Source: Variovorax paradoxus (GTDB lineage Bacteria; Pseudomonadota; Gammaproteobacteria; Burkholderiales; Burkholderiaceae_C). From it: DNA of 64,000 nucleotides. The translations under genes and the position numbers were made by a program. Of the stretch, positions 5,246-54,720 are shown one piece after another; the stretch's first letter is position 1; every line of letters begins with the position of its first letter. The stretch spans positions 3,162,001 to 3,226,000 of the forward strand of contig NZ_CP123990.1 of NCBI RefSeq assembly GCF_029919115.1. Direction: 5' to 3'. The notes under the pieces are model-generated. The model saw nothing but the letters and a program-made list of their open reading frames with translations. It made no database searches and had not been told where the DNA came from.

Positions 5246-5275
5246 TTGACAGGGAAAGTCGTTCGGCGGTTTAAT
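5246..5275 (+). promoter_or_regulatory. predicted sigma-70 promoter of the lyase operon
   Basis: TTGACA at 5246-5251 (full match to the -35 consensus) is followed after 18 bases by TTTAAT at 5270-5275 (five of six at -10). It points toward the HMG-CoA-lyase-type gene and leaves a leader of about 80 bases. It lies in the gap between the divergent regulator and the operon. Confidence 0.6.
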
Positions 5276-5311: not shown

Positions 5312-5363
5312 GTCAAGCGAATCGGCCGATTGCAAGCCGATCGCTCCAAGGAGACAAGAGTCG

Positions 5364-7494: not shown

Positions 7495-7498
7495 CTCA

Positions 7499-8479: not shown

Positions 8480-8501
8480 CCCCGCCGGAGATCGTGCAGC
8501 C

Positions 8502-9446: not shown

Positions 9447-9500
9447 CGGCGGCGGGCGCCGGCCCATGCCCGAGGCGCCGCGGGCTATAGTTCCGCCGCC

Positions 9501-39835: not shown

Positions 39836-39869
39836 GAGGTCTGCGGCTGCGATTGAAGGGGTAGTCTGT

Positions 39870-40235
39870 TCAGCTCTGACGCGTCGCCCTGCTGTGATGA
39901 ACGTACAGATAGATCAGGCCGACGGGCGCGATGAAGATGGCGAAGGTCCAGCACACCAGCATCGTGAACAATTTGACGAAGAGCATGAGGATGGCATTCA
40001 CATAGAACGTGTTCGCGCCCAGCAAGAAATTGATCACGCCCTCGTAGACGAAGCGCGAATAGGGGTAGAGAAACGTGTTCGCGACCAGGAAGACCGCCAT
40101 CCCGAGCGACATGATGTGGGGTGAGCGGCTGGCAAAGAAAACGAAGAATGCCGCAAAGCACAAGCCGAACAGGAACTGACGGAAGTAGTAGGCGGGGGTC
40201 AATCCGCCGAAGGTTTTGGCGAGAAATGGATGCAT
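39870..40235 (-). CDS. small integral membrane protein of unknown function
   Basis: A 121-residue protein with three or four membrane helices: QFLFGLCFAAFFVFFASR, SLGMAVFLVANTFLYPYS, YVNAILMLFVKLFTMLVCWT and FAIFIAPVGLIYLYVHHS. A Pro-Tyr-rich cytoplasmic start (LTPAYYFR) precedes the first helix. The family is not one I can name. It precedes the AP2-module gene by 34 bases on the same strand, so the pair may form an operon. Start at 40235 is the ATG before the first helix; a longer frame to 40286 has no membrane segment in the extension. Confidence 0.6.
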   Translation of the reverse strand: MHPFLAKTFGGLTPAYYFRQFLFGLCFAAFFVFFASRSPHIMSLGMAVFLVANTFLYPYSRFVYEGVINFLLGANTFYVNAILMLFVKLFTMLVCWTFAIFIAPVGLIYLYVHHSRATRQS

Positions 40236-40346
40236 GGTGTTTTGTTCAGACAGTGGTTGTGATCGGGTGCTGACGTTCAGAAGCACCAGATGAATCGGTG
40301 GGGTGTGGCAGGCGCCTGCTTGATCTTTTCCAATTCCTTTTGAGGT

Positions 40347-42128
40347 TCAAAAGCTCGCATTGAGGTTAAACCCAAAGGTGGTCCTTGCCGTGCGATACCC
40401 CTCCGGCTTGCTGATGGGCGCCCCCATGAAGAAGTCATAGCTCAACTTGCTCCACTGCCCCCGCACCCCGACCACCGCGCCGGCCAGGCTGCGGCCGAGT
40501 TGGTCGGCCGTCGAGCGCCCGCCGACATGCCCGTAGTCGGCGCCGACATACAGCTCCGCTCCGCTCTGTCCCATGGCCCACCCGATGTCATTGCGGATCA
40601 GCCAGCCCCGCTCGCCCATCAGGCTCGTCTCGCCGTCGAAGCCGCGCACCGTGTAGCGCCCGCCAATGGCGAACCGGTCCTGCGACATCAGCGGCGTGCG
40701 GTTCCACTGCGCGCGGATCAGCCCCGAATAGCGCAGCTTCTGTTCGCCCAGCTTGAACGGCGCATTCAGACTCACCTCGGCCGTGTACAGCTTCATGCGC
40801 GAGGTGCCGTCCAGCGGCTCGGCGGGGTTGTCGCGGTGGTAGATCTCCTGCGGCGAGGTCCGGGCGCCAAAGCCGCCCGTGCCGTGCTTGAACGCCAGCG
40901 TGCCCTCCAGCGTGGCCTCGCCGATGAACTCCTTGTGGTTCAGGCCCAGCTCCCAGCCGCCCACCACCTGGTGCTGCACCGGCACTTCCGTGTCCTCGAT
41001 GATGCTGCGCGACTCCCGGCGGAAGCCCTTGAGCGCCAGCGTCGTCTTGCGGCTCTGGTCGCGGTACAGCAGGCGCGAGAGCTTGACCTCGGCGTTGTTG
41101 GACTTGCCGGCGTAGGTGATGGGCCCGTTGAAGCTTTCCACGCTCTGGTGGTACTGGCTGTTGGAAGCGGTGAACCCCAGCATCCAGTAGCCGTACGGCA
41201 GCGAGTAGTGCACCGTCTGGCCCTCGGTGCCGTAGCTCGGCTCCGAGAGAAAGTGGCTGTTGATGCTGTGGTTGGCGCTCAGGTAGAACAGATCGTTCAG
41301 CCCGAAGGGGTTGTCCAACGACACCGTGGCGCCGGCCTGGTAGCGGCCGGTGGCCTGGGTGCCGCTGTCGTCCAGGCTCAGGGCCACGCGCCACTTCCGG
41401 GTCTGCACGTACTTGACCACCAGGTCGCTGTCGCCCGGCCTGGCGTTGGGCGCGGTCGAGGGCTCGATCTGGATGTCGGCCTCGGCCGTGGGGGCGCGCT
41501 TCAAGTTCTCCAATCCCTGCTCAATGTCGCGCAGGTTCAGCAGATCGCCCGGACGGGCCGGAATGGCCGAACCCAGCAAGGCGCCGCTGCCCAGCAGCGT
41601 CGCGGACGAATCCGGCGTCAGGCGGATGGCCGCGATGCGCCCGGGCACCAGCGAGAGGGTCAGGGTGCCGGTGGACAGGTCCTGCGGCGCGGCCAGCACC
41701 CGGGTGGTGACGAAGCCGCGCGCGATGGCTGCCTGCTGGGCGCGGGCGAGCACCACGTTCACGCCTGCGGTGCCCAGGCAGCGGCCGAGGGGGGAATCGT
41801 TGCCCTCGGGGCCCGAGAGATCGGAAACCGCCCACTGGAACAATTCGGACTGCTCGCCGAGCAAGAGCACGCGGTCGATGCGGAAGCACGGGGCCTCGGT
41901 CTCGGGAATGCGGGCCACCGGTGCGGGTGGTGCGGCCTGCGGGCGCTGGTCGACGGTGCGCTCGTTCTGCTCGCGCAAAGCACGCTCGCGCTCTTGCTGG
42001 CGTTGTTGTTCGATGAAGGCTTGAGGCGTCGTCGGCGTCTGCTGCGCGACCCCCCACAACGGAGAAGCGGCGAGGGCCACGGCCAGCGCCATGCGCGTGC
42101 GCCGAGGCACGACCGAGGAGTGCACCAT
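40347..42128 (-). CDS. bcpB: two-partner secretion outer-membrane transporter (TpsB/BcpB-like)
   Basis: A 593-residue Omp85-superfamily transporter that exports the large BcpA/FhaA protein across the outer membrane. A signal peptide (ALAVALAASPLWGVAQQ) and Gln/Arg-rich linker precede two POTRA domains (EAPCFRIDRVLLLGE; LVPGRIAAIRLTPDSSATLL) and a 16-strand barrel whose family motif is FAIGGRYTVRGFDGETSLMG near residue 480; the protein ends in Phe, as outer-membrane barrels do. It is the last gene of the bcpA-I-O-B unit, the Burkholderia order, unlike E. coli where the transporter comes first. Starts five bases after the bcpO stop. Confidence 0.93.
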   Translation of the reverse strand: MVHSSVVPRRTRMALAVALAASPLWGVAQQTPTTPQAFIEQQRQQERERALREQNERTVDQRPQAAPPAPVARIPETEAPCFRIDRVLLLGEQSELFQWAVSDLSGPEGNDSPLGRCLGTAGVNVVLARAQQAAIARGFVTTRVLAAPQDLSTGTLTLSLVPGRIAAIRLTPDSSATLLGSGALLGSAIPARPGDLLNLRDIEQGLENLKRAPTAEADIQIEPSTAPNARPGDSDLVVKYVQTRKWRVALSLDDSGTQATGRYQAGATVSLDNPFGLNDLFYLSANHSINSHFLSEPSYGTEGQTVHYSLPYGYWMLGFTASNSQYHQSVESFNGPITYAGKSNNAEVKLSRLLYRDQSRKTTLALKGFRRESRSIIEDTEVPVQHQVVGGWELGLNHKEFIGEATLEGTLAFKHGTGGFGARTSPQEIYHRDNPAEPLDGTSRMKLYTAEVSLNAPFKLGEQKLRYSGLIRAQWNRTPLMSQDRFAIGGRYTVRGFDGETSLMGERGWLIRNDIGWAMGQSGAELYVGADYGHVGGRSTADQLGRSLAGAVVGVRGQWSKLSYDFFMGAPISKPEGYRTARTTFGFNLNASF

Positions 42129-42133
42129 GGTGA

Positions 42134-42739
42134 TCAGCGCCTGAATTCGACCGTGCGAACCGCCGACGGTTTGCCGGAGAAGCCGCTGACGGTGCCGTCG
42201 GCGCCGAAGAGCACATCGACCGGCTCGTCTTCCTGCACCGTCCAGTAGCGCCAAGTATTGGCGTTCAGGTCCTTGGTGTCATTGCGCGAGGGATAGCTCA
42301 GCGCCATCAGCACCTGGGGCCGGGTCATGCCGACCACGACCTTGGCGGAATAGACGGCCTTCTGCACCTCGGGACTCCAGCTGGCGAGCGTCACCCGGGG
42401 ATCAGTGGGCACCACGATCTGGCGCGCCCAGCGCAGCATGTCGTCCCTGCTGCGCGATGTGTCGTCGCGCAGCGAGACGTAGTCGCTGCCGATGGTGCCG
42501 TAGAGGTAGAGGTCCCGCTTCATGGTGTCGAGCACCGCGGGCTCGCCGAACGGCACGATGGGGCCGCCCAGCATGTTGGTGCTGGAGACCCAGCCGTAGT
42601 CGGGGCGCAGGTTGCAGCAGGTGTAGCCGGTGATGGGTTGGGTCAGCTTGGTGGCGCAGCCGGACAGGAGGAGGAGGAGGCCCGCAGCGAGGGCGGTCAA
42701 CGCGGCGATGCGGTGAGGGGAAATGTGTGATCGTTTCAT
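42134..42739 (-). CDS. bcpO: lipoprotein BcpO-like, SmpA/OmlA-type fold
   Basis: A 201-residue lipoprotein with lipobox LLLLLSGCATKLTQ at about residue 25. The C-terminal part (KVVVGMTRPQVLMALSYPSR, ANTWRYWTVQEDEPVDVLFG, ADGTVSGF) resembles the SmpA/OmlA/BamE beta fold. Burkholderia bcpAIOB loci have a lipoprotein gene bcpO between the immunity gene and bcpB; position, size class and lipobox all match here. Role in the system is unclear even in Burkholderia. GC returns to the normal level from this gene on, after the AT-rich immunity region. The ATG at 42739 is chosen over an upstream in-frame start because it begins the lipoprotein signal. Confidence 0.82.
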   Translation of the reverse strand: MKRSHISPHRIAALTALAAGLLLLLSGCATKLTQPITGYTCCNLRPDYGWVSSTNMLGGPIVPFGEPAVLDTMKRDLYLYGTIGSDYVSLRDDTSRSRDDMLRWARQIVVPTDPRVTLASWSPEVQKAVYSAKVVVGMTRPQVLMALSYPSRNDTKDLNANTWRYWTVQEDEPVDVLFGADGTVSGFSGKPSAVRTVEFRR

Positions 42740-42763
42740 TGATATCGCTCTAAACAAATTTGA

Positions 42764-43495
42764 CTAAGCACCTTCAACGAAACTGGAGCCTGACTCCACT
42801 AAGACAGATTTGAACTTCGAAAAATAATCCGCCTCGCCAGAAATCACGCCCAAGAAATCCGAGAACTTCTCCTCATCTTCAAATAAAAACTTCTTCTTGA
42901 CCCTATTGACCGTCAGTACCTCGAATAGCGCATCCAGATTGCCACCCGCATACCCTCGATATCCAAAAATACTCTCCCCCAGAAGGCAATAGAAATCCGC
43001 CTTAGAACGCAGACCATCAAGATTAAGATTAATTACTTCATTAGCAACACAATCTTGAATCCAATTGGTTGAACTTACCAAATCCATGCAGGCCTCAATC
43101 CAAAAATCAGAATATCGACCATCAAGATCCTGCCAGCTTAAGGAATTGCCATCGGCCCAAGCTTCAAAAATTCTCAATTTCCGCAAGCTCGTTCGACCTA
43201 TTTGCATCAAATATCGATGGACATCATTTTGGGTGGAAAGAAGTTTGACGCAATAGAAATTGGCAACCTGAATGGGCCGGCCATTTATATCGATGAGCAA
43301 TGAAAATACACGGCCATCAGGAAGCGTGAATCCGACATAAGGCAGCTTGAGGCCGTGAAGTGAGATAATCAAATTCCCCCCGCCAAAATCGCCGTCTCCC
43401 GCAAACTCCGGGAGGCCTTGAATCAGGTCGAGTCCTAAAACAGCATCATCTTCAGCCGTCTCATCGCGAACGGATAATTGACCTATTTTCATCAT
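42764..43495 (-). CDS. barstar-like protein, candidate immunity protein
   Basis: A 243-residue soluble acidic protein. Residues about 185-210 read FYCLLGESIFGYRGYAGGNL followed by DALFEVLT, which matches the barstar motif (an F...YYG.NLDAL.D.L pattern) that inhibits barnase-like RNases. The first 180 residues (GFTLPDGRVFSLLIDINGRP and later) are of unknown fold. Base composition is visibly AT-rich compared with bcpO and with bcpA. It lies second after the bcpA toxin end, with about 60 bases before it. It may be an immunity protein, or a leftover immunity gene from an earlier toxin. No strong ribosome site is seen. Confidence 0.62.
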   Translation of the reverse strand: MMKIGQLSVRDETAEDDAVLGLDLIQGLPEFAGDGDFGGGNLIISLHGLKLPYVGFTLPDGRVFSLLIDINGRPIQVANFYCVKLLSTQNDVHRYLMQIGRTSLRKLRIFEAWADGNSLSWQDLDGRYSDFWIEACMDLVSSTNWIQDCVANEVINLNLDGLRSKADFYCLLGESIFGYRGYAGGNLDALFEVLTVNRVKKKFLFEDEEKFSDFLGVISGEADYFSKFKSVLVESGSSFVEGA

Positions 43496-43556
43496 TCAAT
43501 GTTGTTCGCTCTTGGGGCCGGGAATTCGATGTTTCCATGGGCTATCACCTTCGCAG

Positions 43557-43772
43557 TCATGAACTACCCTCTTCGCTGCTTTTTCGATCGTAGGCAATGG
43601 AGTGCGATTTTCGATACAAATCTATTCCTCGATCAGTAACATCCTCATATCCAAATTCAACATTGCAATTTGGACATAAAGCATAGGATGGGGTTTTACC
43701 ATCCTCACCCCAAGGAAAGAGTGGGAAACAGTCGAAGCCACAGACACGACACAGCGATCGTTTGTCAATCAT
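43557..43772 (-). CDS. four-cysteine zinc-ribbon-like small protein, immunity candidate
   Basis: A 71-residue protein with two CxxC knuckles, LCRVCGFDCFPLFPWGEDGK and LCPNCNVEFGYEDV, which probably bind zinc. Small proteins of this pattern occur beside polymorphic toxin genes. Its ATG at 43772 overlaps the bcpA stop (ATGA), the strongest coupling in the locus, so translation of it follows the toxin directly as would suit the cognate immunity protein. An upstream TTG at 43784 is a possible but less likely start. AT-rich like the adjoining toxin domain. Function inferred from position only. Confidence 0.6.
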   Translation of the reverse strand: MIDKRSLCRVCGFDCFPLFPWGEDGKTPSYALCPNCNVEFGYEDVTDRGIDLYRKSHSIAYDRKSSEEGSS

Positions 43773-44568
43773 TTTGAATTCCAAAAATCTATATTTGATC
43801 TAAAACCATGTGCTGCCGGATCTGGCCTGAACATCGTTCTTGGAACCCCGTCAGCTGTGCGAACTGCAAACGTGTTTGTACTAACGTCATAGAGAAGTAC
43901 GTCGCCATTTCTTGCGGTCTTTGTAAGGGTGCCTATTGGGGGATTAACCACAAAATTCTGCGCGGCTTCGGCATATTGAGCCAATGAAGGAAATTCAGGG
44001 AATTCAGTACCATGCTTAATCCAATGGCCTGTCGCATTATTTTCCATGCTGCCAGCTTTGCCAACGGTCCAAGCGGTGGCATCAACACCATCTCGATAAA
44101 AATCATTGGTCAGCTTCGCCGCAGCAGAGTCTGACATGCTGGTTCCCGTGCGTTTCAGCACGAATTCCTTCACAACTGCAGTAGTCAATGTCCGCGCGAC
44201 GGCAAGTTCACCCAGTAGCGCCACATCAACGGCGATCAGGCCCACCTCTGCGGCATCCCTGATCACCGGTGCCTTTTCGATCACGTTGACCGCGGTGTTG
44301 ATCTCATTGATGCTCTTCCTCGCCTGCTGTTTGGTTTCCTCGCTAACGTTCGGATTCAAGAGCAACTGTTCGAGATCTCCGCGCATCTGTTCGAGATACT
44401 GCTTCTCGATGAGGGAACTCCGCTTGAGCTCACCGGTGTTCTTGGCGCTCGTAACGTCGTATTCCTGCAAGATCCGCACTTCGCATGCCGGGTCTCCGGA
44501 AGCTTGGCAGGCCTTGATCTTCTGATCTCGGCTGAGCAGGTTGGCGGCAGTGAGGTAGTTGTTGGTCG
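43769..44568 (-). other. BcpA/CdiA C-terminal toxin region
   Basis: The final 266 codons after the NNYL junction. The last 90 residues read SMENNATGHWIKHGTEFPEF then PSLAQYAEAAQNFVVNPPIG, LTKTARNGDVLLYDVSTNTF and AVRTADGVPRTMFRPDPAAH, ending FWNSK. The HWxKHG start, the conserved NG D, the NTF AV and the TMF P segments fit a BECR-fold (barnase/EndoU/colicin E5-like) RNase toxin as found at CdiA C-termini. DNA composition becomes AT-rich in the last 340 bases. Exact enzyme target is unknown. Confidence 0.6.
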
Positions 44569-47389
44569 TCTCGTTGAATGCGCTGGCCGCGCCCGCCGAA
44601 CCACCCGCAGCGGCGCCTATCGTTGCCCCCATGGCCATGACGATTGCCTGCTTGACCGGCACGGGAATGTCGAGCCCAGCGATCTGTTCGCCGATCATCG
44701 GAATGGCAACGCTCGACGCCGCCGCACCAGCCGCACCCGCCGCGCCACCAGTGAGCCCGCCTACCACTGCATGCGCAGCGATGCGGTATGCACCGCCTTC
44801 TTTCCAGTTGCTCGCGATCTCGTCAGCCTGTGCATACAGCGTGGCCTTGGTGGCGGGGTCAGTTGCCTTGGCTGCCTGCTCGTACAGAGCTTTGGATTCG
44901 TCCAGCTTGCGGTTGGCGTAGGCTCCGACTTCCCGTGAAGCGTTCTGGCCAAACTCGGCCGTAATCTGCGCCTGCGCCTGCACGTCCTTGATGATGGTCT
45001 GCGTGTTCCAGTCCTTGATCAGCGTGCCGGTGCTGCTGTTGTCCCCGGTCCTGACGCTCTGGTCGCCCGCAATTCCCGAGATGCCGGACCTCGTGACGCT
45101 GGTCTGGCTATTGCCGCTGACGCTGCCCGCGCCCGCACTGCCACCGGGCCGGCTGTTCGGTCCCGACCACGCCGAGTTCATCTCCGTGGCGGGTGTCGTT
45201 GCCGTCGCAGCCTGCGGTGCCGTGGTGTAGCCAATGCCAACGCTGCCGCTGACCGAATAGCTGCTGCCACTCGACTGGCTCACGTTCTGCAAGTCGCTCA
45301 TGGTGAGCGTACCGCCCGTGCTGAAGCTGTTCTTGCCTGCATCGATGGCCGCCTGCGTGCTCTCGATCACCGCCCCCTTCAGGTCGGTGTTGCCCGCCAC
45401 CTTCACGTCGAAGCCGCCATCGCCGGCCTTGATGCCCGACTGCACGGCCGGGCTGATGAAGATGCCGTCCGCCTTGGCCCCGGCGGCGCTGGCCCCCACG
45501 GTGGCCACCACGCCGTAGCAGATCGGCGGAATGCACAAGCTCAGGTTGAAGCCCGAGCTGCTTTGGCGCGACTGGCCCACGCTCGCGTCCTGCAGGCTCT
45601 CGATGTTCAGGTTGCCGCCCACGTCGGCCGTGACCCGGTTGGCTTCGACGATGCCGCCGCGCATGTTCAGGTCGCCGCCCGAGACGATGTTGACGGCCTT
45701 GCCGCCGCTGACCTGCGTGGCGTTGTAGCTGGTCTCGTTCTGGTTGTTCTTGCCCTTGCCGTTGCTCACGCCCAACTGGATGCTGAAGCCGTTCTGCGCG
45801 CCGGCCCCGAAGGTGACGCCCACGTTGGCGCCATGGCTGGAGTTCTGGCCGACCGTCGCGCTGGTGTTCTTGCTGGCCTCCAGCGAGATGTCGTTGTCGG
45901 CCGCCAGGTTGACGGTATTGCCTGCCGCAATGGTGGAGCCCACGGCGCGGATGTTGGAGTCCTTGCCGCCGCCCGTGGCCACGATGTTGACGTTGTTCGA
46001 GCCCACTACGCTGGAGCCCACGGCCTCGCTGCTGTTGCTGAAACTGGTCGCCTGACTGGTGTTGCGGCTGACGCTCACGCTCACCCCGTAGCTCAGCCCG
46101 CCGGCTCCGCCTGCGAGCGCACTGGCAGCGTCGTAGGCCTGCTTGCCGCTCATGGCCAGGTTGACGGCACCCAGGGCCTGCATGCGGCCATCGCCGGTGT
46201 CGCCCATGGCCTTGATGGTGTTGGAGCCACCTCTGAGCGTGTCCGTGCTGATGCCCATGAAGCTCGCGCTGCCGCCCAGCTTGCTGCTGGAACTGCGCTG
46301 CATCGTCATGCTCTGCTCGGTGTTGAAGGCCTCGTTGATGGTGACGTTCTTCGCAAGGATGTTGACGTCGCCGCCTGCGAGCGGGCCGGCCTGTCCCGCA
46401 GCCATCACGCTGCTGGCGGTCTGGCGGTATTCGTTGCCGGCCACCAGCGTGATGTCACCCGTCAGGCTGGCCACCTGGCTGGCCTGCTGGGTGGTGCGGC
46501 TGGTGGTCTGGGCGCCGAAGTCTTTGATGTGGCCCAACCCAGGCTGCGACCAGGAACCGATAAAGCCGCTCTTGGCGTTGGCCGAGGAACTGCTGCTGAA
46601 CTCGGTGTTCTGGGCGCTCTCGATGGTGAGGTTGCGACCGGCCAGCATGGTGATGTTGCCGTCGGCCACGACGGTCGCCGCTTGCAAGGTGGTGTCGCGC
46701 CCGCTGACGGTCTGCAGGTTGCCGGCCGAGATGGTGGTGCCGACCGCTTGGGTCGTGATATCAACGCTGGTGCTGTTGCCCGAATTCTTGCGGTTGCCGT
46801 AGCCGCCGACCGGCCCGCCGGCATCGGAGGCCAAGGCCCAGGCGCGCGACAAGGCCGTGCTGCTGGTGCGCTGCTGGCTGGCGTGCAGTTCGGTGCTGCT
46901 GCTGGTGGCGGTCGTGAGATTGATGTCGCGGCCGGCCGACAGGCTCATGGCTTCATCAGAGTGAAGCTGTGCGGCCTGCAGGTTGATGTCGTTGCCGGCC
47001 ACTGCAGCCACTGCCTTGCCGCTCAGGCTGCTGGAGAGCACCTCGGTGGTGGTGGTGCTGTCGAGGGTGCTGGAACTGCTCTTCCTGAACAGGCCGTTGG
47101 AAGTTTTCTGCGTGGCCGTCGCAACGCTGGTGGTGGTCTGGCCCGCGGTCAGGTTGATGTCGTTCTTGGCCGTGGCAACCAAGGCGCCGTCGGTGCTCTG
47201 AACGGCACTCGCGCGGATGTTCAGGTTATTGCCGGCCGCGAGGCGCACGTTGTCCTGCCCCTGGATGACCGAACCGACTTCCCGGCTTTGCGAGGCGGCT
47301 ACAGCTGTCTGCTTGCCTGTGTGCGCCATGGCACTAGACTCGGTCACAGTCCCCATGTTGATGTCGCGGGCCCGCGCCCACCGCGGCAC
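43769..47389 (-). CDS. C-terminal part of BcpA/FhaA (CdiA-like), downstream of a frameshift
   Basis: About 1,200 residues continuing the hemagglutinin exoprotein after a one-base frameshift. It holds FHA-2 type repeats (LAAGNNLNIRASAVQ, LSAGRDINLTTATSS, LVAGNEYRQTASSV), a hydrophobic Ala/Gly-rich pre-toxin stretch (AAGAAGAAASSVAIPMIGEQ), the ASAFNETTNNYLTAANLLSR junction typical of CdiA proteins near 44560, and a small toxin domain at the end. Without the frameshift it would be the same protein as the N-terminal part; alone it lacks any signal peptide and could not be exported. A restart at the ATG at 47356 is possible. If the frameshift is a sequencing artefact, the true gene runs 53420-43769, about 3,216 residues. 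Confidence 0.85.
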   Translation of the reverse strand: MPRWARARDINMGTVTESSAMAHTGKQTAVAASQSREVGSVIQGQDNVRLAAGNNLNIRASAVQSTDGALVATAKNDINLTAGQTTTSVATATQKTSNGLFRKSSSSTLDSTTTTEVLSSSLSGKAVAAVAGNDINLQAAQLHSDEAMSLSAGRDINLTTATSSSTELHASQQRTSSTALSRAWALASDAGGPVGGYGNRKNSGNSTSVDITTQAVGTTISAGNLQTVSGRDTTLQAATVVADGNITMLAGRNLTIESAQNTEFSSSSSANAKSGFIGSWSQPGLGHIKDFGAQTTSRTTQQASQVASLTGDITLVAGNEYRQTASSVMAAGQAGPLAGGDVNILAKNVTINEAFNTEQSMTMQRSSSSKLGGSASFMGISTDTLRGGSNTIKAMGDTGDGRMQALGAVNLAMSGKQAYDAASALAGGAGGLSYGVSVSVSRNTSQATSFSNSSEAVGSSVVGSNNVNIVATGGGKDSNIRAVGSTIAAGNTVNLAADNDISLEASKNTSATVGQNSSHGANVGVTFGAGAQNGFSIQLGVSNGKGKNNQNETSYNATQVSGGKAVNIVSGGDLNMRGGIVEANRVTADVGGNLNIESLQDASVGQSRQSSSGFNLSLCIPPICYGVVATVGASAAGAKADGIFISPAVQSGIKAGDGGFDVKVAGNTDLKGAVIESTQAAIDAGKNSFSTGGTLTMSDLQNVSQSSGSSYSVSGSVGIGYTTAPQAATATTPATEMNSAWSGPNSRPGGSAGAGSVSGNSQTSVTRSGISGIAGDQSVRTGDNSSTGTLIKDWNTQTIIKDVQAQAQITAEFGQNASREVGAYANRKLDESKALYEQAAKATDPATKATLYAQADEIASNWKEGGAYRIAAHAVVGGLTGGAAGAAGAAASSVAIPMIGEQIAGLDIPVPVKQAIVMAMGATIGAAAGGSAGAASAFNETTNNYLTAANLLSRDQKIKACQASGDPACEVRILQEYDVTSAKNTGELKRSSLIEKQYLEQMRGDLEQLLLNPNVSEETKQQARKSINEINTAVNVIEKAPVIRDAAEVGLIAVDVALLGELAVARTLTTAVVKEFVLKRTGTSMSDSAAAKLTNDFYRDGVDATAWTVGKAGSMENNATGHWIKHGTEFPEFPSLAQYAEAAQNFVVNPPIGTLTKTARNGDVLLYDVSTNTFAVRTADGVPRTMFRPDPAAHGFRSNIDFWNSK

Positions 47390-50300
47390 TGCCCCCGCTG
47401 ACCAATGCGGCGCCGATCAGGTTGACGTCTCGTCCGGCTGACGCGATCAGAGTTCCGCCGGGGTTCGTCACATAGACGCCCGCCACGCGGTCGATGGTGG
47501 TGGTGCTGACCAGTCCACCCGCACCGCTCGCGCTTTGCGTGGTCGTGCGGATGTTGATATCACGCCCGGCCGTCAGCACGGCGGAGTCTCGTGCCGTGAT
47601 GCTGCCGCCAATGTTGTTAAGGTCGTTGCGGGCATTGATGCCGATGCTGCCGCCGACAATCCGGCCGCCCAGGTTGTTGACGTTTTCGGCGTCGATCTTG
47701 ACCAGACTGCGGCCAGCGATCGTGCCGGTATTGACAAGGTCGCCCGTGCTCTTGATGACGGTCGCATCGGCGCTCAGCAGCGATCCCGATCCATCGATGT
47801 CGCCCGGCCGCACGCGGACATAGACCTGAGACACCAGCACCTGCTGCGTCGTCCCATCCGGCAAGGTCACCGTCTGCTCGACCAGCCACACGATGTCGCT
47901 AGTCAGCTGCGCCATCTGCGCCGCACTCAGGCCGACGCCAGGACGCAGACCGTATTCCTTGGCGAAGGTCACGCCGGCGTTCATCAGCGCAGTGTACTGG
48001 TCGTCGTCGTTGTTGAATCCGTCGAGGTAACGGTAGCCCGTGAGCTGCGCGACCTGTTCACGGATGAGCTTCTGCTCGTAGAAGCCGTCGCCCAGCCGCT
48101 TGAGGATGTTGTTGGGGTCCTGGCCGAGGTTGTTCAGCAGGTAGTCGCTGCTGAGCCACTGGCGGTAGTTCGCGAACCGCGGGTCGGTCTCGATCAGGTA
48201 GCCGCCGGGCCCGGCGTGGATGCCGAACAGGCTGGCATTGGGCAGGCGCGTGTTCGGCAGGCTGGTGCGCACGACCATGGGGACGGTCTGGGCGCCTGCG
48301 CCTGCGGTCCCGCCGGCCGCGCCTGCCGCGGTGCCCGAGGTCGGTGCAACCCCGCCGACATTGGCAGGCACTTGGACGATGACCTCTGCACCACCGGCGC
48401 CATTGACGCCGCCGGTGGCGCCCGCATTGGCATTTGCGCCGCCGATGGGCGCAGCCCCCGCGTTGTAGCCCTTCGTGGCGTTGAGGTTGGACTTGTACTC
48501 ATAACCACCCAGGGGAATCTGCTGCGGCGGCATTGGAAGGACGACCGTCTCCTGAAAAACTCCGAAGCGGTCATACACGGCCGCCACATCCAGCGTGGTG
48601 CTTTGACCGGTCAGCTGCGGACCCGCTTCATAGTCGTTGGCATAGATGGTGCCGCCCGCGAGTACCTTGCTGTTCTCGTTGTACAAGTGTCCATTCACGT
48701 TCATGTCGCCACCCGCGACGATGCGCGCAGGGGCCGCGTCGACTGCGGTGTCGGCCGTGACCGTGGCCGCGTGCTTCCAGGTGCCCCAGACATTGCCACC
48801 CGGGTTCAGCAAGGCGCCCTGGCTGCCGTCGGGATTGCGTGCCCACACATAGGTCTGCCCCTGGATGGCGATGACGTCCTCGGGCAAGAAGATGCCCACC
48901 CCTTCGATATTGATCGTGTCATAGGCCAGTGGGGTCGTCGTCTGCGGCCCCAGCTTGATGTGCGTGTCCTTGTTGTTGATCTGCGCCATCGCGATCGACA
49001 TGTCGCCCAGGGACTCGATGTCCGCACTCAGGTTGTTGAGCACGGCGCCCTGGCCGGTGGCTTGGCGATTGGCGTCGAGCGCTCCGCCGATGTTCATCGA
49101 GCCTGCGGCCAGGCCGCCGCTGAAGATCAGCGCGTGCTCGCGGTTATTGATGGTGCCCGCGCCGATGTCCAGGGTGTCGCGTGCGGCGATGGTGCCGGCC
49201 TTGGTCACGCCGTTGACCATCTCGGCTTCGTTGTTGAGCGTGCCCGCGGCAATGGAAATCGCATCGCCGTAGATGCGGCCGGTGCCGATGTTGTTCAGCG
49301 TGCCCGCATCGATCTGCGTGGCGCCTTGGCTGTCGATCAGGCCGCGGTTGGTCAATGTCCCCGCGACATTGACGACGGTGTCCGTCCCCGACATCTCCGC
49401 ATTGGCCGTGTTGTCCACGTTGTTGCCGCCGATGGTGAGCGTCTGGCCCGCCAGCAGCTTGCCGTTGTTCGTGAAGTTGCCGGTGGTGGTGTAGCTCAGG
49501 TTGCCATTGGCGGCCACCTCGCCGTTGTTCACGATGTCCTGGGTGAGCGCGATGCCCAGGTCCTGGCCCGCGACAGCTTTGCCGTCGCCGCTGAAGGTGG
49601 CGGCGTCGATCTGCAGGCTCTTGTCGGCCACCAGCGTGCCGCCGGTGTTCACCAGGTTGAGCGTCTTGGCGCCGGGGTTGGCCGTGTTGGGATCGACGAT
49701 CTTGAGCGTGTCACCCGCCGAGATCAATCCATTCGTGTTGTTGACGGTGCCGCCGCTGGTGAGGGTGGCGTTGACGTCGGCGCGGATGGCACCCGAGGTG
49801 TTGTCAAGGTTCCCCGCGCCGATGACCACGTTCCGGCCTTCGATGCCTTGGTTGGTGCCGAGGGTATTGGTGTTGACGATGCTGCCGGCGTTCAGCGTCG
49901 TCGTGGCTGCCGAGCGGATCAGGCCCTTGGTATTGGTCAGCGTTCCCGCGTTGATGCCGAGGTTTCCCACCGCCAGTGTCTCGCCGCCGGTGTTGTCGTA
50001 GCCTGCGCCGTTGGTGTCGATTGCCACCGTGGACTGGCCGAGCACCTGGCCTTTGCCCGTGTTGGAGAAGGCCTGCGTATCGGCGATCAATGCGTTCTTC
50101 GCGCCGATGAAGCCGGCGTTGTTGTTGACCGCCCCGACGGTCAGCGCGAGCGTATCGCCGCTGGTGATGCCGCCTTGGCCATTGGTATAGCCGGACGCGT
50201 TGGTGTTGGTGAGCACCTGACCATTCGTATTGATGGTCATGGCGGCGCCGCTTTGCAGCAGGCCTGTGTCGTTGTTCAGCGCACCGGACCTCACGTCGAC

Positions 50301-53300
50301 GGTGGTGGTTGCTGCCAACGTGCCCTTCGCACTGTTGTCCAGTGCATTGCCGTGCGTATCCACCAACAGGCTGTTGCCGAAGACCTTGCCCGACTGGTTG
50401 GTCAGGCCGCCATTGCTCAACGTGGTCGCGCCGCCGGCTTGCAGGGTGCCGCCGTTGTTCGTCGTCGCGCCGGTGGTCGTGACATTCAGGTTGCCGGTGA
50501 CGGCGGCGGTTGTTCCTGCGCTGTTGTCCAGGCTGGCCGCGGTCAGCGTCGTGTTGCCGTTCGCGGCCAGCGTGCCGCCCACGTTGGTCGCCGCCCCGCC
50601 GATGGTGGCGCTCAGGTCGCCGACCGCGGTCACGCTGCCCGCGTTGTTGTTCAGGCTGCCCGCCGCGATGGTGGTGCTGCCGCCCGCGCCGATCACGCCC
50701 TGGTTGCTGTTGTCGAGCAAGCCGCCCACGGTCAGGCCGAGATCGGAAGTCTCGGCAGCCCGAATGGTGCCGCCCTGGTTGACCAGGCTGCCGGCCGCGA
50801 TGGTCGTGTTGCCGTTACTGGCCAGCGTCCCGCCGCTGTTGTCCACGGCGCCCACCACCGTGACGCGCGTGGCGTCGGTGCCGGTCTGCACGATCTGGGC
50901 ACCAGTGCGGTTGCCGAGCGACCCGGCGTCGATGGTGATCTGCTTGGCGCTGATCGCGGCCTTGGTGCCATCCTGGCTGAAGGCGCCCGACATGGCGACC
51001 GTCAATGCGCCGTTGGCCGTGATCTGGCCGTCGGTGCTGCTGTAGCTGCCGCCCGCGACGGCGAGCGTGCCGGCGCCGGCATGCTCGATCTTGCCGGCTG
51101 CGTTGGTGATGCTGGTGCCTTGCAGCGTGAGGTCCTGGCCGTTGCTGGCGATGCGGCCACCGTCGTTGTTCAGGGTGCCGCCGGTGGCGATGGTCGTTGC
51201 GCCCGTGCCGGTCTGCACGATCTCGCCGCCGTCCGTGTTGGCGAGGTTCGAGACGCTGATCTGCAGTTGGGCGGCGTTCAGCTGGCCGGCGCTGTTCACG
51301 AGCGTCTGGCCGGGCTGCGCATTGGCCGTGATGGCCAAGGTGCCGGGGGTGGCCACGGTGGCCCCGCTGGTGGTCACGTCGCCCTGGGTGGCGGTGACGG
51401 CGATGTGGGCGGCGCCCGTCTGGCTGCCGGAGAGGTCGACAAAGGCGCCCTGCAACGCCAGCTTGCCGCCGGCGGCGTTGGTGCCTGTGGAGGTCAACCC
51501 TTGAGCCGCCGTGACATTCAGGTCGCCCGTGCTTTGCAGCGATCCCTTGGTGCCCTCGAGGCTGCCGGTCTGGATGGTGAGGTTCGCACCGCTCCCAATG
51601 TGACCGTCGGTGTTCAACAGCTGCTGGCCGATGGTGGCCTGGACATTGCCGCCGGCCGACTGGATCGTGCCCTGGCTGTTGTTCAGGGACTGGCCGGTGA
51701 CGGTCAGGCCCTGGTTCGAGGCCAGCGTGCCGGCGGTGTTGTTCACCGCGCCCGCCACGTTCGCGGTCAGTGCGCCTGTGGCCGAGATCGTTCCGCGCGT
51801 GTTGTCGGCCTGGCCGCCCACGGTCAGGGTGGCGTCGGACGCACTGGTCAGCTTGCCGTCGACATTGACCAGATCGCCCGTGGTCGCAATGTTCAGGCTG
51901 CCCGCGTTCAGCGTCCCACCGGTGTTGTCCAGCTGGCCCACGTTGGCGCTGAAGCTGTTGCTGACGTTGAGCGTCCCGCCCGCGTTGCTGAAGGTCGGGC
52001 CCGTGACCGCCATGCTGGCCACCGACAGCGAGCCGCCCGCATTGTTGATCTGCGGGGTGTTCAGTGTGACCGGGCCGCCAGCGTAGATCTTGCCGCCGTC
52101 ATTGAGGATGGCGCCTGCCGCGGTGAGGGTGCCGGGCGATGTGGGCACATACGGCGCCGGTGCGGGTGAGGCTGTGCCGCTGGTGCCGGAAGTGGCGCCG
52201 GTGGTCGTCGTTCCGGTGCCGGCCGCGCCTGTACCGGTTCCGGTGCTCATGCCGCCGCTGGTGCCGGTGGTTCCCGGTGCTGGCGCCGGCTCGATGCCGA
52301 TGACCCCGCCGTTCGTGTTGGACAGCACCGGTGCCGTGATCGCGAGCCCCACGCTGCTGGTCTGGCGGATCGTTCCACCGCGGTTGTCGATGTCGCCGGC
52401 GCTGGCGAGCTCGAGGCGCGTGCCTTCGAGGGTGCCGGTGTTCTCGATCCGTCCAGCTGCGGTCACGATGAGATTGCCATTGCTCGCGCCGATGCTGCCG
52501 GCATTGCGCACGCCGAGGCCGGCCTCGGTGCCGATGAGGGTGATCTTGCCGGCGTACATGCCGCCGAGCGCGGCCGCGTCCAGGGCGAAGGTGGGTGCCG
52601 TTCCGGTGCCGCTGGTTGGCGTGATCTGGCTGTGGTCGGCGCTGATCTGGTTCGCGCCTGTGACCACCTTGAGGTCGGTCGCGTAGATGGCTGCATTGAC
52701 CTGCACGGCGCGCGCGAGGATGGCCGCGTAGTCGGTCTTGCTGGCATCCAGGCCCGCACCATCGATGGTGACGGTGCCGCCTCGCACGAGGAAGCTATCG
52801 AGGCCGCCGATGGCGTTGAATTGCGGCGTGCCCGTGGTCACCGTGGTGCGGCTGGCATTGATGAAGCCGCCGCCGTTGATGCTGATGCCTGCAGGATTGG
52901 CGATGATTACTTCGGCACGCTGCCCCGCGACTTCGATGTAGCCGCGCAGCTGGCTGGGGCTGCCGCCGTTCACCTCGTTGACGATGATGCGTGCGGGGCC
53001 GGTCGCGAGATACGGATTGCCCTGGACGATGCCGCCGAGCTGCGTGCCTACATTTGTTCTGCTGTTGTTCAGGACGGCGCCATTGGGGGCCACGTTGAAC
53101 TGCTGGTACACATTGCGCGAAACACCGGCGGCGCTGGGCGTCTGGATGTTGACGAGCGGCACGCCGTTGGGCGCGACCATCACGGTGGGCCGCAGGTTGC
53201 CGGGAACGGTGGGGGCGCCGACGATCTGGGCTTGAGCGGGCGAGGCTGACAGCATGCCCGCGAGCGCGGCGCCCACGAGCATGGGCGCAAAGGCTGCGGA

Positions 53301-53420
53301 ACCGGCCACTACTGTGGTGGCCTTGGAAGCGCCTTTGCCGGTGGTGGCCGCCGCCTCGTGAACGACAACCCGCATTGCGCGCGCCGCGCTCCATATCACT
53401 CTAAAAAAATGCTTATTCAT
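47334..53420 (-). CDS. bcpA: N-terminal part of BcpA/FhaA (CdiA-like) exoprotein
   Basis: A 2,028-residue secreted filament. Residues 1-25 (MNKHFFRVIWSAARAMRVVV) form an extended signal peptide region and export cleavage is near ASPAQAQ at 64. The TPS domain (residues 66 to about 310) contains NPYL (in GGIVQGNPYLATG) and NPAGI (IIANPAGISINGGGFINASR), the NPNL/NPNG-type motifs read by TpsB. A Thr/Gly/Pro-rich linker near residue 400 is followed by dozens of FHA-1 beta-helix repeats (LDNTGGTLNAGSLNIATTGD), then a region with LFGIHAGPGGYLIETDPRF and NYRQWLSSDYLLNNL, as in other CdiA proteins. The start at 53420 follows a GGGAAGAAG site. It ends early because of a frameshift at about 47370. Confidence 0.9.
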   Translation of the reverse strand: MNKHFFRVIWSAARAMRVVVHEAAATTGKGASKATTVVAGSAAFAPMLVGAALAGMLSASPAQAQIVGAPTVPGNLRPTVMVAPNGVPLVNIQTPSAAGVSRNVYQQFNVAPNGAVLNNSRTNVGTQLGGIVQGNPYLATGPARIIVNEVNGGSPSQLRGYIEVAGQRAEVIIANPAGISINGGGFINASRTTVTTGTPQFNAIGGLDSFLVRGGTVTIDGAGLDASKTDYAAILARAVQVNAAIYATDLKVVTGANQISADHSQITPTSGTGTAPTFALDAAALGGMYAGKITLIGTEAGLGVRNAGSIGASNGNLIVTAAGRIENTGTLEGTRLELASAGDIDNRGGTIRQTSSVGLAITAPVLSNTNGGVIGIEPAPAPGTTGTSGGMSTGTGTGAAGTGTTTTGATSGTSGTASPAPAPYVPTSPGTLTAAGAILNDGGKIYAGGPVTLNTPQINNAGGSLSVASMAVTGPTFSNAGGTLNVSNSFSANVGQLDNTGGTLNAGSLNIATTGDLVNVDGKLTSASDATLTVGGQADNTRGTISATGALTANVAGAVNNTAGTLASNQGLTVTGQSLNNSQGTIQSAGGNVQATIGQQLLNTDGHIGSGANLTIQTGSLEGTKGSLQSTGDLNVTAAQGLTSTGTNAAGGKLALQGAFVDLSGSQTGAAHIAVTATQGDVTTSGATVATPGTLAITANAQPGQTLVNSAGQLNAAQLQISVSNLANTDGGEIVQTGTGATTIATGGTLNNDGGRIASNGQDLTLQGTSITNAAGKIEHAGAGTLAVAGGSYSSTDGQITANGALTVAMSGAFSQDGTKAAISAKQITIDAGSLGNRTGAQIVQTGTDATRVTVVGAVDNSGGTLASNGNTTIAAGSLVNQGGTIRAAETSDLGLTVGGLLDNSNQGVIGAGGSTTIAAGSLNNNAGSVTAVGDLSATIGGAATNVGGTLAANGNTTLTAASLDNSAGTTAAVTGNLNVTTTGATTNNGGTLQAGGATTLSNGGLTNQSGKVFGNSLLVDTHGNALDNSAKGTLAATTTVDVRSGALNNDTGLLQSGAAMTINTNGQVLTNTNASGYTNGQGGITSGDTLALTVGAVNNNAGFIGAKNALIADTQAFSNTGKGQVLGQSTVAIDTNGAGYDNTGGETLAVGNLGINAGTLTNTKGLIRSAATTTLNAGSIVNTNTLGTNQGIEGRNVVIGAGNLDNTSGAIRADVNATLTSGGTVNNTNGLISAGDTLKIVDPNTANPGAKTLNLVNTGGTLVADKSLQIDAATFSGDGKAVAGQDLGIALTQDIVNNGEVAANGNLSYTTTGNFTNNGKLLAGQTLTIGGNNVDNTANAEMSGTDTVVNVAGTLTNRGLIDSQGATQIDAGTLNNIGTGRIYGDAISIAAGTLNNEAEMVNGVTKAGTIAARDTLDIGAGTINNREHALIFSGGLAAGSMNIGGALDANRQATGQGAVLNNLSADIESLGDMSIAMAQINNKDTHIKLGPQTTTPLAYDTINIEGVGIFLPEDVIAIQGQTYVWARNPDGSQGALLNPGGNVWGTWKHAATVTADTAVDAAPARIVAGGDMNVNGHLYNENSKVLAGGTIYANDYEAGPQLTGQSTTLDVAAVYDRFGVFQETVVLPMPPQQIPLGGYEYKSNLNATKGYNAGAAPIGGANANAGATGGVNGAGGAEVIVQVPANVGGVAPTSGTAAGAAGGTAGAGAQTVPMVVRTSLPNTRLPNASLFGIHAGPGGYLIETDPRFANYRQWLSSDYLLNNLGQDPNNILKRLGDGFYEQKLIREQVAQLTGYRYLDGFNNDDDQYTALMNAGVTFAKEYGLRPGVGLSAAQMAQLTSDIVWLVEQTVTLPDGTTQQVLVSQVYVRVRPGDIDGSGSLLSADATVIKSTGDLVNTGTIAGRSLVKIDAENVNNLGGRIVGGSIGINARNDLNNIGGSITARDSAVLTAGRDINIRTTTQSASGAGGLVSTTTIDRVAGVYVTNPGGTLIASAGRDVNLIGAALVSGGSAAVGAGPRHQHGDCDRV
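47368..47373 (-). other. frameshift point in bcpA/fhaA
   Basis: Just before its stop the N-terminal frame reads LVSGGSAAVGAG then PRHQH, whereas the other frame continues RDINMGTVTESSA, the repeat pattern GAGRDIN seen many times in this protein. One extra base in the GGGCCC run at 47368-47373 accounts for the switch. It may be a real mutation, phase variation or a sequencing slip in a GC-rich run. Confidence 0.85.
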
Positions 53421-53487
53421 CTCGTTCTTCTTCCCTGATCGATCCGGTGACAGCGACAACACACAGCGCGCAGGCGGCATGTTGAAT

Positions 53488-53507
53488 TGCCGACGTCTAC
53501 GTCGGCA
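53488..53507. promoter_or_regulatory. 20-bp palindrome upstream of bcpA
   Basis: TGCCGACGTCTACGTCGGCA is a perfect palindrome of 9-bp arms around a central CT, 68 bases upstream of the bcpA start codon. Length and perfection suit the site of a dimeric regulator (LuxR/FixJ-like sites are of this size), but no regulator gene is next to it and the protein is unknown. Confidence 0.5.
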
Positions 53508-53636
53508 GGCCCGGATTCTGGGTTCGAGATGCCGCCAGAAGTGCTAACGAATCTGAAGGTGCGCAGATTGAGCCGAAAAGCGCCACATATCGCACACGCG
53601 CAACCAGTGGAGATGAATCATTAAGTAGTCATCGAT

Positions 53637-53711
53637 GTGACTCGGCGGCTACGATTTCGGCCGGTAGCCACGAGTCACGAATCCCTCCTCCCTGAGTGAG
53701 GCTACCTTTTT
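53637..53711. other. competing hairpins around a nine-codon ORF
   Basis: GTGACTCG (53637-53644) pairs with CGAGTCAC (53671-53678) and GGCTAC (53647-53652) with GTAGCC (53664-53669), giving a 42-base stem-loop. The segment GGTAGCC (53663-53669) can instead pair with GGCTACC (53700-53706), followed on the plus strand by TTTTT. On the minus strand this region carries a strong GGGAGGAGGG ribosome site, then GTG at 53678 and a frame MTRGYRPKS ending at 53649. One arm holds the start codon and part of the ORF. This looks like a switch, but direction and role are unknown. Confidence 0.45.
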
Positions 53712-53712
53712 G

Positions 53713-53750
53713 ACCCGCCTCGACGAACCTCGTCCTGGCGGGTTTCTTTT
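53713..53750 (+). terminator. terminator-like hairpin, plus strand
   Basis: ACCCGCC (53713-53719) pairs with GGCGGGT (53737-53743), with an inner GACGA/TCGTC pair in the loop, then TTTCTTTTT. It reads as a terminator only on the plus strand, where no gene is seen upstream before the divergent bcpA; it may end a small RNA or antisense transcript. Confidence 0.55.
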
Positions 53751-53989
53751 TGCAGCCTCGTGGTGAGTGAGCGTCGCACTGGCGTCCAGAACCCCTGTGA
53801 GCGAGCCGCTCCGTTGAGCGAATGTTTTTTGCTGCGTCGTTCGCACGCGGCCTTGGCCGCGTGGTCCATTCCGATTAGTGTCGCCGCCGATGCTTTGCTT
53901 TCTCTCGATCTTCGGAAAGGAATGGGAGACAGTCCGCGTATCAGCACGCAGGAGCCGACGTGACTTGTATTGATCTCCACGGGCGGCGC

Positions 53990-54616
53990 TTACCCCCGCG
54001 CGCGGCGGTTCGACATCACCACGTTGTCCTTCTCGATCGGCGTTCCGGCCTGCAGGGCGGCAATCCATGCCTCGGTGCTCGTCACGGCCGCGAAATTGCT
54101 GTGGAACACGACGCTGAACACGCGGTGGATTTCCTCGGCGCTCACCTTGCCGGCCGCATTCTCGTACGGCAGTGCGCCGGTGGCATCCGAAAGAAACTCC
54201 ACGTTCAGGCCGCGGTGCATGGCCTCGAACACGGTGGACGCATCGCAGTTCTGCGTCATGTAGCCAGCCACGCTGAGCGTGTCGATCTCATGGCGCGCGA
54301 GCCAGTCGGCAAAGTCGGTGCCGGTGAAAACACTGGGAAAGGCCTTGGTCACCAGGTGGTCGCGCGGGCGCTTGGCAACCTCAGGATGCAGTTCGCCGTT
54401 GTGGGTGCCGGCCTGGAACACCGGCGCACCCTTGGGTGCGTGGTGCCGAACCACCACCACCGGCGTGCCCGCGGCGTGGGCCGCATCCATTGCCTTGGCA
54501 ATGTTGGGCAGCGACTGCTCGACCGGCGGATATTCGATCGGCAGGCCGCCGCCTTCGAAATACTCGTTCTGCACGTCGATCACGACGAGGGCGCGGCGCG
54601 GTGCGGGGTTGCTCAT
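53990..54616 (-). CDS. isochorismatase-family cysteine hydrolase
   Basis: A 208-residue hydrolase of the isochorismatase/nicotinamidase superfamily. The catalytic triad is suggested by Asp in RRALVVIDVQNEYFEGGGLP, Lys in VVVRHHAPKGAPVFQ and Cys in VAGYMTQNCDASTVFEAMHR. Members hydrolyse amides, vinyl ethers or similar bonds; the substrate is not evident. It starts at 54616 with an AGGAGCAAC site and is read divergently from the GlxA-type regulator, which may control it. Confidence 0.88.
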   Translation of the reverse strand: MSNPAPRRALVVIDVQNEYFEGGGLPIEYPPVEQSLPNIAKAMDAAHAAGTPVVVVRHHAPKGAPVFQAGTHNGELHPEVAKRPRDHLVTKAFPSVFTGTDFADWLARHEIDTLSVAGYMTQNCDASTVFEAMHRGLNVEFLSDATGALPYENAAGKVSAEEIHRVFSVVFHSNFAAVTSTEAWIAALQAGTPIEKDNVVMSNRRARG

Positions 54617-54720
54617 GGTGTGTTGCTCCTGGCGATGGTTGTGTTGGGATGGGTTGATTCTTCCCTCTCGGGCGTGTCCGAGAAAGTGGCCCGAAAGCCA
54701 TTCATCGATAAAATCGGGCC

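What the first reader, a model, noticed from the sequence alone, without database searches (positions are those of the whole stretch)
40347..53420. Burkholderia-type CDI locus in bcpA-I-O-B order
The minus strand carries, in order, a CdiA-like exoprotein, two small immunity candidates, a lipoprotein and a TpsB transporter. E. coli loci run B-A-I; Burkholderia bcpAIOB loci run A-I-O-B with a lipoprotein O before B. Here the order, the ESPR, the TPS domain motifs NPYL and NPAGI, the NNYL junction and a terminal nuclease-like domain all fit the Burkholderia type, but in what looks like a Variovorax-like chromosome. Seen: gene order, motifs. Established: bcpAIOB architecture. Inference: that it acts in kin competition.
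Basis: partly seen in the sequence, partly recalled or inferred. Interest (0 to 1): 0.8.

Follow-up and report, generated by a model that had tools for sequence, protein, structure and literature searches.

The report
Variovorax contact-dependent inhibition gene locus
This is a locus of the kind bacteria use to poison touching neighbours, but by its trees, junction motif and helper lipoprotein it is not the Burkholderia type it resembles, and its big toxin-carrier gene is interrupted by a frame change in this genome.

Summary
The minus-strand locus 40347-53420 is real: a CdiA-like exoprotein (TpsA), two immunity candidates, a lipoprotein and a TpsB. TpsA lies in two reading frames that meet near 47370, while seven related loci read through there. 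As sequenced, the toxin end would not be made.

The label "Burkholderia-type" is not borne out. The order A-I-O-B recurs in Variovorax, but TpsB and TPS-domain trees put the Variovorax A-first loci apart from Burkholderiaceae ones, with B-first loci between (one clade rejected, AU p 3e-11 and 2e-7). The Nx(E/Q)LYN junction is absent. The lipoprotein has 201 aa, not 73-74, and a BamE-like domain; homology to BcpO could not be tested.

The last 100 aa match the toxin chain of PDB 8ey4. The 71-aa cysteine-rich protein overlapping its stop codon is the probable immunity protein: similar pairs lie in four other genomes, once behind an Rhs-like protein. Toxin and immunity genes are GC-poor (0.45 against 0.66).

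A-first order in Variovorax was already in print. I found no report of the separate origin or the BamE-type lipoprotein. Verdict: new variant of a known kind.

The parts
47334..53420 (-). TpsA/CdiA-like exoprotein, first reading frame (2028 aa, start at 53420, ends at a stop just after the frame change)
53277..53420 (-). ESPR (extended signal peptide)
   Evidence: Pfam PF13018, E 5.5e-9; own-genome search
52443..53228 (-). TPS secretion domain
   Evidence: Pfam PF05860, E 4.4e-53
47366..47372 (-). place where the TpsA reading frame changes; seven related loci read through in one frame
43769..47389 (-). TpsA/CdiA-like exoprotein, second reading frame (1206 aa) with haemagglutinin repeats and C-terminal region
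   Evidence: Pfam PF13332, E 8.9e-59
44552..44563 (-). NNYL junction, 264 aa from the C-terminus
   Evidence: no N.[EQ]LYN in the TpsA pieces
44087..44563 (-). first 159 aa of the C-terminal region, probable cytoplasm-entry part; 66% identical in L035, where another toxin follows
   Evidence: role inferred
43769..44071 (-). toxin domain (100 aa), homologous to chain A of PDB 8ey4
   Evidence: profile E 9.5e-35
43557..43772 (-). probable cognate immunity gene, 71 aa, two CxxC pairs; its start codon overlaps the toxin stop codon by 4 nt
42764..43495 (-). second immunity candidate, 243 aa, partial Barstar match; probably left from another module
   Evidence: Pfam PF01337, E 2.7e-5, residues 154-195; kept in L039; origin inferred
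42134..42739 (-). lipoprotein O, 201 aa, lipobox LSGC at Cys28, SH3-like N-terminal part and BamE-like C-terminal domain
40347..42128 (-). TpsB transporter (two POTRA domains and ShlB barrel), starts 6 nt after O
   Evidence: Pfam PF03865, E 3.4e-102

Best explanation
This is a CDI-type two-partner secretion locus of a Variovorax class whose A-first gene order arose separately from that of the Burkholderiaceae A-first loci. In its intact form (as in relatives) TpsB would export the TpsA fibre; on contact the C-terminal 264 aa would be released into a neighbour, the first ~160 aa mediating entry and the last 100 aa acting as toxin; the 71-aa cysteine-rich protein would protect the producer. [quoted passage not shown] Shown by sequence: gene order, domains, pairing of toxin and 71-aa-type gene across genomes, polymorphism of the toxin region, and BamE likeness of O. 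Inferred: delivery, toxicity, immunity and the role of O. In this genome the TpsA frame is interrupted, so the allele as sequenced would secrete at most a toxin-less fibre, unless the break is a sequencing error.
For: Domains. Seven neighbour loci were mapped: L029-L034 show TpsA, variable ORFs, O, TpsB (L034 holds only a TpsA tail; O in L033 and L034 reads in two overlapping pieces at an undetermined base); in L035 A and B are there and O is in pieces. TpsB is 83-97% identical in the seven while the window's toxin domain is in none; L035 shares only the first 159 aa of the C-terminal region. Trees: A-first rows fall in two starred groups, Variovorax (9 A-first rows and 1 undetermined) and Burkholderiaceae (3 and 3); one clade rejected, p-AU 3.3e-11 for TpsB and 2.0e-7 for the TPS domain. 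Toxin-immunity pairing: 8ey4 chains A and I; in the order sample of 399 genomes toxin and 71-aa protein occur in the same 2 genomes, own and G256; Rhizobium acidisoli, G743 and Burkholderia pyrrocinia have the toxin with a cysteine-rich ORF right after it. O: profile against the PDB, the 15 best hits are BamE chains, 8.5e-5 to 4.9e-4; 30 of 40 family members match PF04355 at E <= 0.01 (the 40 are the window's O and 39 of the 86 proteins); model pLDDT 92.3, best structural rows BamE and 9vnj_B. GC 0.452 over toxin domain and immunity genes against 0.665 in the rest of TpsA.
Confidence: 0.72

Rival explanations
1. A true Burkholderia-type bcpAIOB locus, acquired by or inherited in Variovorax, with a diverged junction and BcpO.
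For: Same gene order, lipoprotein before B, residue after the lipid cysteine is Ala not Asp, as for BcpO; Burkholderiales host. The LYN motif is not a clean marker: of four Burkholderiaceae loci in which I looked (L093, L133, L134, L135) only L135 has N.[EQ]LYN.
Against: TpsB and TPS domains lie in separate starred clades with B-first loci between; no N.[EQ]LYN in the window; lipoprotein of other size and domain.
Confidence: 0.1
2. A dead locus (not exclusive of the best explanation): the frame change is real, the toxin is not made, and the remaining genes are kept as immunity genes or as a secreted adhesin.
For: Frame break. L039 keeps the same two immunity candidates after losing all but the tail of this toxin. 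The genome has a second A-first locus with an unbroken 3076-aa TpsA.
Against: The 1206 codons after the break hold no stop and, up to the toxin region, are 76-89% identical to L029, L035 and L039, so the break is recent or a sequencing error; it lies in a GC-rich run.
Confidence: 0.35
3. O is an ordinary housekeeping lipoprotein that happens to lie in the operon and has no part in secretion (a rival to one step of the best explanation).
For: Members without a TPS gene in the DNA held exist (L048, L052, L054); a 35% identical paralogue lies elsewhere in the genome; the second A-first locus lacks O.
Against: 14 of 17 O loci have a TPS gene near O. In the window O ends 6 nt before TpsB. The genome also has a BamE-OmpA lipoprotein right after an ESPR gene with a trimeric-autotransporter-like end, and TpgA is reported to raise surface display of AtaA (PMC8151025 passage).
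Confidence: 0.35

Closest known systems
Burkholderia bcpAIOB CDI systems (PMC3415462)
   Same: Order A-I-O-B, TPS exoprotein with variable C-terminus, lipoprotein before TpsB
   Different: TpsA/TpsB in another clade than the Burkholderiaceae A-first loci sampled, no Nx(E/Q)LYN, O is 201 aa and BamE-like instead of 73-74 aa, C-terminal region 264 aa instead of about 350
cdiAIB order in Variovorax (PMC4364669, introduction passage)
   Same: A-first order in this genus already stated there
   Different: The passages seen name no lipoprotein in Variovorax and no separate origin, and tie this order to a lack of orphan modules; L039 has one
E. coli-type cdiBAI
   Same: Toxin-immunity logic; the toxin domain also occurs in an E. 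coli plasmid gene annotated CdiA; NNYL resembles the end of VENN-type junctions (recalled)
   Different: Gene order; no VENN in the TpsA pieces
PDB 8ey4 and 8ey3: PT-VENN protein toxin and Cys_rich_CPCC protein
   Same: Toxin domain homologous (profile E 9.5e-35); the partner chain is a CPCC-type cysteine-rich protein
   Different: A profile with the window's 71-aa protein found neither partner chain; the Rhizobium CPCC protein does find them, so that link is indirect
BamE, and TpgA (partner of the trimeric adhesin AtaA)
   Same: BamE-like domain in an envelope protein that serves outer-membrane assembly or display; 9vnj_B, taken to be TpgA-N, is the third-best structural match
   Different: O has an SH3-like part instead of the OmpA part seen in the genome's own TpgA-like protein, and lies in a TPS locus; function not tested

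Membership tests
CDI (two-partner secretion with polymorphic toxin and immunity) | TpsA with ESPR, TPS domain and haemagglutinin repeats, plus a TpsB | tested here: met
CDI (two-partner secretion with polymorphic toxin and immunity) | Conserved body with exchanged C-terminal toxins among relatives | tested here: met
CDI (two-partner secretion with polymorphic toxin and immunity) | Toxin followed at once by a small cognate immunity gene | tested here: met
   4-nt overlap; same kind of pair in G256, G743, Rhizobium acidisoli and Burkholderia pyrrocinia; cognate action itself not assayed
CDI (two-partner secretion with polymorphic toxin and immunity) | Unbroken exoprotein gene | tested here: not met
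   frame change at about 47370; real or sequencing error not decided
CDI (two-partner secretion with polymorphic toxin and immunity) | Contact-dependent growth inhibition with specific immunity | not testable with these tools
   needs a competition assay
Burkholderia-type bcpAIOB | Gene order A-I-O-B | tested here: met
Burkholderia-type bcpAIOB | Nx(E/Q)LYN about 350 aa from the C-terminus (nearly all members, per the paper) | tested here: not met
   pattern scan of the TpsA pieces
Burkholderia-type bcpAIOB | BcpO lipoprotein of 73-74 aa (or 57-172 aa without signal sequence) | tested here: not met
   201 aa with lipobox, BamE-like
Burkholderia-type bcpAIOB | Sequence homology of O to BcpO | not testable with these tools
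   no verified BcpO sequence was obtained; two P. caribensis lipoproteins at the O place gave no match to the O profile
Burkholderia-type bcpAIOB | TpsA/TpsB in one clade with Burkholderiaceae A-first loci | tested here: not met
   those loci stand in for bcpAIOB, no verified BcpB was in the tree
BamE domain (lipoprotein O) | Sequence match to PF04355 | tested here: inconclusive
   window member E 0.0073, below cut-off; 30 of 40 family members at E <= 0.01; profile to PDB BamE 8.5e-5
BamE domain (lipoprotein O) | BamE fold | tested here: met
Toxin of PDB 8ey4 | Sequence homology over the domain | tested here: met
Toxin of PDB 8ey4 | Enzymatic activity and target | not tested
   the structure job was never accepted; no activity assay

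The most novel reading that the evidence does not exclude
A-first CDI loci evolved at least twice in Burkholderiales, and the Variovorax line recruited a BamE-type lipoprotein with an SH3-like domain as a dedicated outer-membrane cofactor for its two-partner secretion, in parallel with BcpO in Burkholderia and with BamE-like TpgA for trimeric autotransporters. A TPS transporter (Omp85 superfamily) would thus carry its own BAM-like accessory subunit.
Probability: 0.35. Interest if true: 0.68.

Novelty: new variant of a known kind. Interest (0 to 1): 0.5.

Why it matters
Why Burkholderia CDI needs BcpO is unexplained; its discoverers suggested an analogy to the Bam lipoproteins (PMC3415462, discussion). 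Here the lipoprotein at the same place looks like a BamE-family protein, in a line that trees say reached the A-first order separately. That makes the Bam analogy directly testable: does O bind the POTRA domains of TpsB, or TpsA, and does its loss stop export? It also gives a second system in which to ask why A-first loci acquire a lipoprotein.

Tried and rejected
Rejected: Burkholderia-type membership (see membership test). Rejected: a CDI locus intact as read; the exoprotein is in two frames. Considered and not claimed: that the toxin is a BECR-fold RNase. The KH...R...T..P pattern recalls colicin D-like enzymes, but no credible Pfam family was matched and the structure job could not be placed. 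Considered: the 243-aa Barstar-like protein as the cognate immunity; less likely than the 71-aa protein, whose kind recurs with the toxin. A direct BcpO comparison failed: no lipoprotein of 73-74 aa was seen before TpsB in the order sample or in P. caribensis, and PF12779 in the own genome lies elsewhere (the link between that family and BcpO is recalled). A named Burkholderia (B. pyrrocinia) TpsB, added late, sits on a very long branch apart from both A-first groups, next to a second, shorter exoprotein gene; it raises the count of order changes from 2 to 3, and one clade is still rejected, but it is no verified BcpB. Rfam over 39000-55000 gave nothing above a gathering score, so the tRNA-Asn call at 51646-51734 is probably spurious. 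In the structure list for O, families not listed are not excluded. One search did not turn minus-strand loci; one search repeated those turned. One search, a regex over 20 loci, found only one relative of O and was used for no count. On re-checking I lowered the best explanation from 0.75 to 0.72 and raised the Burkholderia-type rival from 0.07 to 0.10, because only 1 of 4 Burkholderiaceae loci checked has the LYN motif and no BcpB was verified.

Papers. PMC3415462: abstract, sections 7 and 9, and the first of two parts of section 21 read. Passages only: PMC4364669, PMC3482391, PMC9086364, PMC6604945, PMC8151025, PMC13082670, PMC5911999. The other papers were seen in listings only. That I found no report of the BamE-type lipoprotein or of a separate origin rests, over open-licence PMC papers only; three of these five listings were cut.
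Full report
What is there. On the minus strand lie a TpsA-like exoprotein starting at 53420, a 71-aa ORF (43772-43557), a 243-aa ORF (43495-42764), a lipoprotein (42739-42134) and a TpsB (42128-40347). ESPR, TPS, haemagglutinin repeats, POTRA and ShlB domains are matched above Pfam cut-offs. The exoprotein is not one ORF: 2028 aa in one frame end at a stop at 47334, and 1206 aa in another frame run from 47389 to 43769. By comparison with relatives the change lies at about 47366-47372. At that place seven related loci (L029, L032, L035, L039, L042, L044, L045) match on in one frame; four of them are shown as one long ORF (L029, L032, L035, L042). One other relative, L033, has its own break elsewhere. 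The window's second piece holds no stop and, up to the toxin region, is 76-89% identical to L029, L035 and L039, so the break is recent or a sequencing error.

Host.

Relatives. A relative of the lipoprotein (E <= 0.001) is in 22 of 61 genomes, own included, all of the window's genus; close ones are in 5 of the 60 others (G004, G030, G011, G016, G034), the rest are 32-37% identical. Seven loci from these five were mapped. In L029-L034 the order is TpsA, variable small ORFs, lipoprotein, TpsB; L034 holds only a TpsA tail, and in L033 and L034 the lipoprotein reads in two overlapping pieces at an undetermined base. In L035 the lipoprotein is in pieces. TpsB is 83-97% identical in the seven, while the window's toxin domain is in none; L035 shares only the first 159 aa of the C-terminal region (66%), then another toxin follows. 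In Variovorax DXTD-1 (L039) TpsA ends in one C-terminal region, then comes a second copy of part of the TpsA body with another and a following ORF, then the last residues of the window's toxin, then both immunity candidates of the window at 91-93% identity. Modules are thus exchanged, and immunity genes outlive their toxin.

Toxin and immunity. The last 100 aa match PDB 8ey4 chain A (E 9.5e-35, profile of 15 sequences). Chain I of 8ey4 and 8ey3 are Cys_rich_CPCC proteins, found with the Rhizobium CPCC protein; a profile with the window's 71-aa protein did not find them. In 399 genomes of the order the toxin domain occurs in 2 (own and G256) and the 71-aa protein in the same 2; the own genome also gave one weak toxin match elsewhere. 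In G256 the carrier is an Rhs-like protein (recalled repeat pattern). In Rhizobium acidisoli an annotated CPCC-family gene overlaps the toxin stop codon by 4 nt; G743 has a CPCC-type ORF at the same place; in Burkholderia pyrrocinia the stretch right after the toxin holds an ORF with the same CRVCG, PWGEDG and FGYED motifs as the window's 71-aa protein. In the window the overlap is also 4 nt. So the 71-aa protein is the probable immunity protein. Against this: of 15 loci scanned only 2 (G256, G743) had such an ORF; most of the others are short lipoprotein-like ORFs. The toxin domain is also in 35 plasmid records, 22 of them Escherichia. In 398 genomes of the phylum the profile rings in 14, own included. 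Toxin domain and the two immunity candidates together have GC 0.452, the rest of TpsA 0.665.

Gene order. Of 42 TpsB loci (the window, 8 other Variovorax-type loci, 30 of the 41 non-own rows, and three plasmid loci), 12 are A-first, 23 B-first, 6 have no TpsA start in view and 1 has it on the other strand. On the TpsB tree the A-first rows fall in two separate starred groups (Variovorax: 9 A-first rows and 1 undetermined; Burkholderiaceae, with the named P. caribensis: 3 and 3), with B-first rows between; the root is at the midpoint, for drawing only. Holding the 12 A-first rows in one clade is rejected (p-AU 3.3e-11). The TPS-domain tree of 36 rows agrees (p-AU 2.0e-7). The groups were named from the gene order before the trees were built. 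Limits: sampling by similarity to the window's TpsB; no verified BcpB; that the Burkholderiaceae group is bcpAIOB is inferred. Of four of its loci checked for N.[EQ]LYN only L135 has it (NVELYN, 179 aa from the C-terminus; L093, L133 and L134 have none). The window has none, only an LYN at residue 1578 of the first piece. Adding the B. pyrrocinia TpsB (A-first, long branch, apart from both groups) gives 3 changes and still rejects one clade.

Mechanism. TpsB exports TpsA; [quoted passage not shown] the C-terminal part enters a touched cell and the 71-aa protein protects the producer. The steps after secretion are inferred from the CDI literature. In this genome the frame break, if real, would stop the toxin from being made.

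Known and new. A-first order in Variovorax was already stated (PMC4364669 passage), and two CDI toxin/antitoxin genes of Variovorax WDL1 are reported as overexpressed in a consortium (PMC5911999 passages). I found no report of a BamE-type lipoprotein in a TPS or CDI locus or of a separate origin of the order. The case is a new variant of a known kind.

Noticed in passing
L039 (Variovorax sp. DXTD-1), 3900-9980: An A-first locus with an orphan TpsA C-terminal copy and ORF, and a remnant of a third toxin; the passage seen in PMC4364669 ties A-first order to a lack of orphan modules.
   Followed up: partly
L099, L100, L102-L109 (10 genomes of family code f84): The toxin-like domain lies at the C-terminal end of lipoprotein-like ORFs (nine of 181-271 aa, one of 454); no convincing CPCC-type ORF was seen beside them. 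Perhaps another use of the same fold.
   Followed up: no
G000:C1:4500-22500 (L091): Second A-first locus of the same genome: unbroken 3076-aa TpsA with a Hint-like part (recalled), a duplicated immunity-like ORF, TpsB about 89% identical, no O.
   Followed up: partly
window 38783-39835, minus: 350-aa protein with internal repeats that look AP2-like (recalled); relatives lie beside TpsB in L029, L033 and L034. Possible regulator.
   Followed up: no
G000:C1:3231833-3232774: A third TpsB about 6 kb beyond the window's end, with a large ORF next to it.
   Followed up: no
G000:C1:1990500-2000500 (L145): ESPR gene with a trimeric-autotransporter-like end followed by a BamE-OmpA lipoprotein, a TpgA-like pair.
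   Followed up: partly
L046 and L047, 3-10594: TpsA, small ORF and O without a TpsB in the DNA held: the transporter may lie elsewhere.
   Followed up: no
L147 (Burkholderia pyrrocinia plasmid pBPJTT), 1315-5930: After a large exoprotein with the same toxin domain come a CPCC-type ORF, a hypothetical gene, a second shorter exoprotein gene and a very divergent TpsB.
   Followed up: partly
window 51646-51734, plus: ARAGORN tRNA-Asn call inside the TpsA gene on the other strand; no Rfam match at E <= 0.1, so probably spurious.
   Followed up: partly
window 17296-17502, plus: Weak match (28% identity, E 4.1e-4 in one genome) to the toxin domain.
   Followed up: no
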